Assembly: GCA_017511645.1 (NCBI GenBank)
Contig: JAFWJH010000004.1
Coordinates: forward strand, 1-64,000
From: Candidatus Saccharimonadota bacterium
GTDB lineage: Bacteria; Patescibacteriota; Saccharimonadia; Saccharimonadales; Saccharimonadaceae
Length of the DNA stretch: 64,000 nucleotides
Reading direction: 5' to 3'
This document shows, piece after piece, positions 46,993 to 48,258 of the stretch. Both the position numbers and the translations under genes were made by a program. Within the stretch, counting starts at the first letter, position 1. Each line of letters opens with the position of its first letter. The notes under the pieces were generated by a model. That model saw nothing but the letters and a program-made list of their open reading frames with translations. It was not told the DNA's origin and searched no databases.

Positions 46993-47613
46993 TTACTCCT
47001 TTCCCTCCACGCTTACAATACCTTTCTTCGGGCCAGGCACAGCGCCTTTTAGACCGATCAGGTTATTTTCCGCGTCGATATAAGCGACTACGAGATTCTT
47101 TACGGTTACTTGGTCGTGACCCATGCGGCCTGGCATTTTCTTGCCCTTCCAGACTTTTTGTGGATACATCGAACCAATCGAACCTACACGGCGGATATTA
47201 CCCTTAAAACCGTGCGTATTACGGGATTCGTTAAAGTTATAACGTTTCACTGTACCAGCAAAACCCTTACCTTTACTCGTCCCAGTTACGGCTACCTTAT
47301 CACCTAGCTTAAAGCTATCCACAGTAAGATTATCGCCGAGCTTCATCCCTTCAGGAATCTCTTCTACGCGAAACTCCTTCAAGACTTTAGGATTGATATT
47401 TTCACCAGCCTTTTTTACATGGACAGATACCGACTTGCTCAGATTCTTACCCTGACCATATCCCACCTGCACAGCGTTATAACCATCAGTATCGACGGTT
47501 TTAATCTGAGTCACCGTGCAAGGGCCAGCTTGGAGGATAGTTACTGGCGTAACTTCACCCGTATCGCCGATGATCTGGGTCATACCAATTTTGGTGCCGA
47601 GAATGACTTGCAT
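46993..47613 (-). CDS. rplC: 50S ribosomal protein uL3
   Basis: A 206-residue protein reaching the peptidyl-transferase centre (MQVILGTKIGMTQIIGDTGEVTPVTILQAGPCTVTQIKT, GFAGTVKRYNFNESRNTHGF, PGRMGHDQVTVKNLVV). First gene of the cluster; rpsJ (uS10), which normally precedes it, is absent. AGGAAAGGAATAGG precedes the ATG. Confidence 0.97.
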   Translation of the reverse strand: MQVILGTKIGMTQIIGDTGEVTPVTILQAGPCTVTQIKTVDTDGYNAVQVGYGQGKNLSKSVSVHVKKAGENINPKVLKEFRVEEIPEGMKLGDNLTVDSFKLGDKVAVTGTSKGKGFAGTVKRYNFNESRNTHGFKGNIRRVGSIGSMYPQKVWKGKKMPGRMGHDQVTVKNLVVAYIDAENNLIGLKGAVPGPKKGIVSVEGKE

Positions 47614-47814
47614 CCTATTCCTTTCCTTTATTTTGTTTGATTATTTAGAGTTTTGCCTCTGTACAACAGGCAAAACTACCACACTCGCCTATAGCAAGCA
47701 ATTTCGAAAGTTTTATCTCTGTACACCAGACAAAACTTTACACTATTAAAACTAGACTTTTAGGCCGGTTTCTTCCATCCTTCGACTTCAGACCTCACCT
47801 TATGTCTAGATAAC
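47614..47814 (-). promoter_or_regulatory. structured leader of the S10-type operon
   Basis: About 200 untranslated bases. Two similar hairpins stand in tandem: 47707-47739 (12-bp arms) and 47649-47677 (10-bp arms), both with a loop that reads TGTACAG on the mRNA. Upstream, CTAGAC (47752-47757) can pair with GTCTAG (47804-47809). The arrangement suggests feedback control by a ribosomal protein. Confidence 0.6.
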
Positions 47815-47820
47815 TCTCAC

Positions 47821-47849
47821 ATTATAGCACACATCCGCCCCTTTTTCAA
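47821..47849 (-). promoter_or_regulatory. promoter of the rplC operon
   Basis: Minus strand TTGAAA, 17 bases, TATAAT, with TGTGC before the -10. Confidence 0.75.
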
Positions 47850-47916: not shown

Positions 47917-48258
47917 TTATTCGCTATCTTCTTCATACACATCATTTTTGATTCTTTTTCTGTAAAACAGAAACCAAATCACCATAATGATGATCTCTAC
48001 CGCAACCAACGCCGCCAAAGCGATAATCTTATGCGATAAATCCGTACCGAGCGAAGAGAAAAACAGCAATAAAGCAATCACAGCCTGCAGGCCCGCCGGA
48101 AAACGAATATTGTCCGATATAACCGCAATCAAAACAATAATACCAAGTGTTCCGCCAAGCATCACACACTGCACTGTCTCTGCTGCTACCCCAAGGCTCA
48201 GCATGATGATTGAAGCAATCGCCATCAATGCATCAAAGATCAATACGAAAAAAGTCAT
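47917..48258 (-). CDS. hypothetical four-helix membrane protein
   Basis: A 113-residue protein made almost entirely of four hydrophobic helices (FFVLIFDALMAIASIIML, CVMLGGTLGIIVLIAVI, LQAVIALLLFFSSLG, IIALAALVAVEIIIMVIWFLFY), ending in a charged tail (RKRIKNDVYEEDSE). No family recognised. GGGGAGGG precedes the ATG. It is a single-gene unit with its own promoter and terminator. Confidence 0.8.
   Translation of the reverse strand: MTFFVLIFDALMAIASIIMLSLGVAAETVQCVMLGGTLGIIVLIAVISDNIRFPAGLQAVIALLLFFSSLGTDLSHKIIALAALVAVEIIIMVIWFLFYRKRIKNDVYEEDSE

What the first reader, a model, noticed from the sequence alone, without database searches (positions are those of the whole stretch)
47649..47739. Tandem hairpins in the S10-type operon leader with compensatory changes
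Hairpins at 47649-47677 and 47707-47739 share outer stem AGTTTT/AAAACT and a loop reading TGTACAG on the mRNA, but differ in the inner stem (GCCT/AGGC versus ATCT/AGAC, pairing kept through a G-U). Conserved loops with changed but still paired stems suggest two copies of a protein-binding RNA element. Such autoregulatory sites are known upstream of rplC-type operons, but this form is not familiar to me.
Basis: partly seen in the sequence, partly recalled or inferred. Interest (0 to 1): 0.6.

Follow-up and report, generated by a model that had tools for sequence, protein, structure and literature searches.

The report
Ribosomal-protein mRNA leader with paired-loop hairpins
The two look-alike hairpins are real, evolution-tested RNA structures in the untranslated start of a ribosomal-protein message of tiny Saccharibacteria, and they sit beside a larger, undescribed RNA element found across the whole bacterial order that probably lets the cell sense and adjust its own ribosome-protein supply.

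Summary
Both hairpins lie on the mRNA strand between a predicted promoter and rplC (uL3), first gene of an S10-type operon in a Saccharibacteria (Nanosyncoccus-like) genome. The hairpin ("B") is strongly supported as RNA: 51 distinct copies from genus relatives keep 10-bp pairing through many compensatory changes. In whole-genome searches it is confined to one genus, and every strong match checked lies in the rplC leader; 13 leaders carry two copies. Just upstream (47740-47809, minus) is element "A", a two-part stem with a conserved RGYC/GR-AA-CY core, present upstream of rplC in 48 of 54 leaders tested across the order (1 of 216 shuffled controls) and detected in 160 of 393 class genomes. A third hairpin ("D", loop UANAG) lies between the two B copies. 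No Rfam family matches. B's nine-base loop carries a six-base self-complementary word; the rare variants (UGUACA, UGAUCA, UACGUA) are all palindromes, as expected for loop-loop kissing. I read the leader as a new ribosomal-protein leader: A is the likely protein-binding site, B an accessory, probably kissing, hairpin. Ligand, binding and regulation are untested.

The parts
47821..47849 (-). predicted promoter TTGAAA-17-TATAAT, extended -10 (TG)
   Evidence: consensus scan, 11 of 12 matches; chance alone gives about one such site in the region, but a -10-like box lies at the same place before element A in most relatives
47740..47809 (-). element A: conserved leader domain. P1 CTAGAC (47809-47804) with GTCTAG (47757-47752); P2 AGG(T) (47800-47797) with (G)CCT (47765-47762); core GGTC (47794-47791) with GAAACC (47772-47767), AA bulge at about 47770-47769; tail TTTTAATAGTG
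   Evidence: 83.7 bits with model R2; structure parser 48/54 leaders vs 1/216 shuffled; covariation; class scan
47707..47739 (-). hairpin B1, 12 bp stem, loop GGTGTACAG with palindrome TGTACA at 47725-47720
   Evidence: 46.3 bits with model R1; covariation
47682..47700 (-). hairpin D: TGCTTGC / loop TATAG / GCGAGTG
   Evidence: loop UA[U/G/C]AG on a 5-bp or longer stem in 32 of 99 genus leaders, 0.55 expected in shuffles; varied stems keep pairing
47649..47677 (-). hairpin B2, 10 bp stem, loop GTTGTACAG with palindrome TGTACA at 47665-47660
   Evidence: 53.7 bits with model R1; covariation
47619..47629 (-). probable Shine-Dalgarno AAAGGAAAGGA
   Evidence: read directly from the sequence; AAAGGAAAGG or a close form precedes rplC in nearly all genus leaders
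46993..47613 (-). rplC (uL3), first gene of the operon, followed by rplD, rplW, rplB, rpsS
   Evidence: NCBIfam TIGR03625, TIGR03953, L23 models (below their cut-offs), TIGR01171, TIGR01050; ORFs

Best explanation
The region is the 5' leader of the uL3-first S10-type mRNA and works as a ribosomal-protein leader that is specific to one order of Saccharibacteria. Shown by comparison: element A is an RNA structure conserved upstream of rplC across the order, and hairpins B and D are RNA structures added between A and the ribosome-binding site in one genus. Inferred: a ribosomal protein encoded in the operon (uL4 by precedent, or uL3, uL23 or uL2) binds A when in excess and lowers translation of the operon. 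Inferred with less confidence: the B hairpins present a six-base self-complementary loop that pairs loop-to-loop, either with the second B of the same leader (possible in this window) or with another mRNA copy, compacting or pairing leaders next to the ribosome-binding site.
For: Element A: parser finds it in 48/54 rplC leaders vs 1/216 shuffled; the P1 stem is CUAGAC/GUCUAG in this genus and CUUGGUG/CACCAAG in the rest of the order; compensatory changes in 9 of 17 pairs and 5 of 15. All 30 order loci fetched with R3 lie just upstream of rplC. Distribution 160/393 class genomes; no hit outside the order in the phylum sample at E 0.001. No Rfam family. Hairpin B; 50 of 344 family genomes, all in one genus; in the 60-genome scan every strong hit was at rplC. 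Palindrome: 51 distinct copies, 49 UGUACA, one UGAUCA, one UACGUA, plus a further UGAUCA copy in a 10-nt loop in L183; flanking purines mostly G..G, changing together to A..A in three leaders (L008/L148, L143, L196). The layout, two bases then a six-base palindrome then one purine, resembles the HIV-1 DIS loop, a six-nucleotide loop palindrome flanked by conserved purines (PMC7357161; exact DIS loop layout from memory).
Against: No binding, transcript or expression data. The ligand cannot be named: neither A nor B matches the rRNA pieces searched. Nothing in A or B overtly hides the Shine-Dalgarno in this window. Kissing: only two or three variant palindromes, of uncertain independence (tree); in 4 of 13 two-copy leaders the loops are UGUACA plus UGAUCA, which cannot pair with each other (computed +1.4 kcal/mol), so kissing within a leader cannot be the general role; most B leaders have one copy; the 6-bp loop helix is weak (-4.8 kcal/mol against -7.9 for GUGCAC).
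Confidence: 0.6

Rival explanations
1. B is a sequence-specific protein-binding hairpin: an r-protein or another RNA-binding protein reads the loop UGUACAG and the inner stem, two copies giving tighter binding.
For: Loop far more conserved than the stem; the string ACAGAGG recurs in the apical loop of element A in many order members; two-copy leaders in 13 genomes.
Against: Loop hexamer changes to other palindromes (UGAUCA, UACGUA) rather than to single-base variants; absent from 43 of 99 leaders of the same genus.
Confidence: 0.3
2. B, D and related hairpins are structural spacers or mRNA-stability and processing elements (for example RNase III substrates) that separate A from the ribosome-binding site.
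For: Leaders without B mostly place A 20-40 nt from the start codon; leaders with B fill a longer gap with strong hairpins.
Against: A spacer does not need a near-invariant 9-nt loop with flanking purines; D has its own conserved loop.
Confidence: 0.15
3. The inverted repeats are DNA operators for a dimeric repressor near the rplC promoter.
For: Palindromic DNA with a TGTACA centre, downstream of the promoter.
Against: Many copies hold G-U pairs that pair only on the mRNA strand; the model scores the mRNA strand about 25 bits above the other; the loop is asymmetric; no other strong site in any genome searched.
Confidence: 0.03

Closest known systems
Ribosomal-protein leaders (r-leaders), such as the 20 of Eckert and Weinberg 2020 (PMC7247131)
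   Same: structured 5' leader consistently upstream of r-protein genes, supported by covariation; that list includes an L4 candidate upstream of rplC in Archaeoglobi
   Different: none of the 20 listed is from Saccharibacteria or Patescibacteria; the A structure and B hairpins match no Rfam family
S10 operon leader of E. coli regulated by L4 (uL4), from established knowledge
   Same: same operon type, leader control by an operon protein proposed
   Different: here the operon starts at rplC; rpsJ lies on another contig; no structural match found; ligand unknown
HIV-1 dimerization initiation site kissing loop (PMC7357161)
   Same: hairpin loop with a six-base palindrome flanked by purines
   Different: weaker A-U rich palindrome; bacterial mRNA leader; no dimer shown
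Guanidine-II (mini-ykkC) riboswitch
   Same: two tandem similar hairpins whose loops can pair through palindromic bases (kissing listed in PMC7357161; tandem layout from memory)
   Different: different loop sequence and length, most leaders here have one hairpin, only upstream of rplC, no Rfam match

Membership tests
ribosomal-protein leader | consistently located in the 5' leader of r-protein genes | tested here: met
   A: all 30 order loci checked are upstream of rplC; B: strong hits of the 60-genome scan all at rplC
ribosomal-protein leader | conserved secondary structure with covariation | tested here: met
ribosomal-protein leader | transcribed with the gene | tested here: inconclusive
   promoter-like site upstream of A; no transcript data
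ribosomal-protein leader | bound by an r-protein encoded in the operon, lowering expression | not testable with these tools
   needs a binding and reporter experiment
known r-leader families in Rfam 15 | match at the family's gathering score | tested here: not met
   no match in the window; only chance-level matches in 10 leader loci
rRNA-mimicking r-leader | resembles the ligand's rRNA site | tested here: not met
   no credible match of R1, R2 or R3 in partial rRNA loci of relatives; not a defining feature of all r-leaders, and 23S coverage was partial
palindromic kissing-loop hairpin (HIV-1 DIS type) | six-base self-complementary loop flanked by purines | tested here: met
   all 51 distinct copies palindromic; flanks G..G in most, A..A in some
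palindromic kissing-loop hairpin (HIV-1 DIS type) | palindrome kept when the sequence changes | tested here: inconclusive
   UGUACA, UGAUCA, UACGUA: every variant is palindromic, but the events are few and possibly not independent
palindromic kissing-loop hairpin (HIV-1 DIS type) | forms a dimer | not testable with these tools
   needs native gel or analytical ultracentrifugation
guanidine-II riboswitch | two tandem hairpins with ACGR loops | tested here: not met
   loops GNUGUACAG; no Rfam match

The most novel reading that the evidence does not exclude
A bacterial ribosomal-protein operon is controlled by loop-loop kissing of palindromic hairpins, within one leader when two copies are present or between two mRNA copies when there is one, so that leader dimerization is coupled to r-protein sensing by element A.
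Probability: 0.25. Interest if true: 0.8.

Novelty: new variant of a known kind. Interest (0 to 1): 0.56.

Why it matters
How the Candidate Phyla Radiation, with very small genomes, balances ribosomal proteins with rRNA is little known. A leader conserved across a whole order gives a concrete, testable site for autogenous control, and cultured Saccharibacteria exist. If the B loops kiss, it would add mRNA dimerization or intraleader kissing to the known ways of controlling ribosome synthesis.

Tried and rejected
23S mimicry: E. coli H63 (GGUGAGGUCC...GAUACC, from memory) looks like the A core, but the Saccharibacterial 23S loci do not have it, and models R1-R3 find nothing credible in the rRNA loci. 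A GGTC...GAAACC string in 23S domain I of one relative is lost in a genus member. Mobile repeat: rejected, no second strong site in the genomes. Terminator or attenuator: the only terminator-like hits are the upstream gene's terminator and hairpin D, whose U-tract is poor. DNA operator: see rivals. Apical-loop to Shine-Dalgarno pairing (UUUCC in L020, L022, L025, L031) was seen by eye only and not pursued. Kissing between the two copies of one leader as the general role: rejected because four two-copy leaders carry incompatible loops. A first version of the D analysis failed on a coding error and was rerun.

Full report
Setting. The window carries an S10-type operon on the minus strand that starts at rplC: uL3, uL4, uL23, uL2 and uS19 were named by NCBIfam (uL23 only below the model cut-offs; ORFs). 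rpsJ lies on another contig, so rplC is the first gene. The closest relatives by uL3 are Candidatus Saccharibacteria MAGs, many from ruminant gut, including Candidatus Nanosyncoccus alces at 92% identity. The own assembly is 77% complete.

Observation. The G-U that preserves the B1 inner stem exists only on the mRNA strand. The leader folds with z = -3.1 against dinucleotide shuffles. A promoter-like site (TTGAAA-17-TATAAT) lies at 47849-47821, so both hairpins would be in the leader, about 200 nt long.

Hairpin B in relatives. I fetched rplC upstream regions of 33 genus and about 20 order relatives. Fifteen B copies align without effort; 98% of cells pair, 5 of 10 pairs show compensatory change, and slid controls fall to 60% or less. 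Model R1 finds B in 15 of 60 relatives at a loose cut-off; the strong hits (13 genomes) are all in the own genus and all at rplC, and the two weaker hits elsewhere (G042, G032; E about 0.01) are not upstream of rplC. In the family, 50 of 344 genomes have B at E 1e-4, all in this genus, 1 of 61 genera (the contexts of those further hits were not each checked). Eighty further loci from genome contigs raise the count to 56 of 99 distinct genus leaders and 51 distinct copies (56 rows, five of them spurious by loop). Thirteen leaders carry two copies, the first about 85-120 nt and the second about 24-55 nt before the start codon.

The loop. B has a nine-base loop: purine, any base, a six-base word, purine. 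The word is UGUACA in 49 distinct copies, UGAUCA in one (three leaders, plus L183 with a ten-base loop) and UACGUA in one (two leaders). All are self-complementary. By simple counting a random two-base change of UGUACA is palindromic in about 7% of cases (9 of 135) and a random four-base change in about 2% (27 of 1215), so the pattern is suggestive but rests on two or three events; the rplC tree places the UGAUCA leaders apart but with weak support, and leaders may be exchanged between strains. The flanking purines change together from G..G to A..A in three leaders. The arrangement resembles the HIV-1 DIS kissing loop, whose six-base loop palindrome is flanked by conserved purines (PMC7357161). 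Because four two-copy leaders carry UGUACA plus UGAUCA, which cannot pair with each other, kissing within one leader cannot be the general role; pairing between mRNA copies, or a different reason for the palindrome, must be considered.

Element A. Immediately upstream of B, nearly every leader has CUAGAC ... GUCUAG enclosing an inner stem with a constant core: RGYC on the 5' side and GR-AA-CY on the 3' side, with a two-base bulge (AA, sometimes UA). Outside the genus the outer stem is CUUGGUG/CACCAAG. A simple structure parser, whose pattern was drawn from these same leaders, finds A in 48 of 54 leaders and in 1 of 216 Markov-shuffled leaders; it misses several that are visible by eye (for example L023, L024, L036, L085). 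Covariation: 5 of 15 pairs in the genus, 9 of 17 in the order. Model R3 finds A in 160 of 393 class genomes, with the genus form caught by R2. In a phylum sample no genome outside the order is hit at E 0.001; two class-level hits outside the order are weak. All 30 loci fetched from the class scan are upstream of rplC. In one subclade the apical loop of A (ACACUC) can pair with the tail (GAGUGU); over all genus leaders loop-tail complementarity exceeds that of permuted partners (518 vs 467 +/- 10, 0 of 500), but the related leaders are not independent.

Element D. Between the two B copies, or after a single B, lies a hairpin with loop UA(U/G/C)AG, in 32 of 99 leaders against 0.55 expected in shuffles, with varied but paired stems.

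Known families. Rfam has no match in the window and only chance-level matches in ten leader loci. The 20 r-leaders of Eckert and Weinberg 2020 include none from this phylum; their nearest is an L4 candidate before rplC in Archaeoglobi. I found no paper on an r-leader in Saccharibacteria in the held library, which holds only part of the literature. The rRNA loci of relatives show no copy of A or B, though 23S coverage was partial.

Interpretation. The leader is best read as a new ribosomal-protein leader: A as the conserved sensor, B and D as lineage-specific additions. What is shown is structure, conservation and location. Protein binding, feedback and kissing are inferred. I give the leader as a cis-regulatory RNA about 0.85, feedback by an operon r-protein through A about 0.6, and functional kissing by B about 0.25-0.3.

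Noticed in passing
window 47682-47700 (-): Third covarying hairpin D with loop UA[U/G/C]AG, tightly linked to B in the genus; function unknown.
   Followed up: partly
L002, L122, L131, L161, L183 leaders, about 150 nt before rplC: A further hairpin type (C) with loop GUGGA and a B-like stem (for example TTTTGCCT/GGGTGAGA) lies upstream of two B copies.
   Followed up: no
L014, L018, L151, L157, L179, L181, L182, L195, L197, L200 leaders: Apical loop ACACUC of element A is complementary to the conserved tail GAGUGU: a probable pseudoknot in this subclade.
   Followed up: partly
L117, L118 (genus g26, G113): CUCCCAC or CUUCCAC overlapping the 3' strand of A's outer stem can pair with GUGGGAG at the Shine-Dalgarno: a possible switch that hides the ribosome-binding site.
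   Followed up: no
G198 contigs C5 and C7; G113 contigs C1 and C2: Two different rplC genes, each with its own element A, in one assembly; possibly mixed MAGs.
   Followed up: no
genome G000: No 23S rRNA found in the own assembly (77% complete), and 23S matches in relatives are broken into pieces.
   Followed up: no
window 47917-48258 (-): Small predicted membrane-type protein upstream of the leader, no NCBIfam match, followed by a strong terminator-like hairpin at 47901-47881.
   Followed up: no
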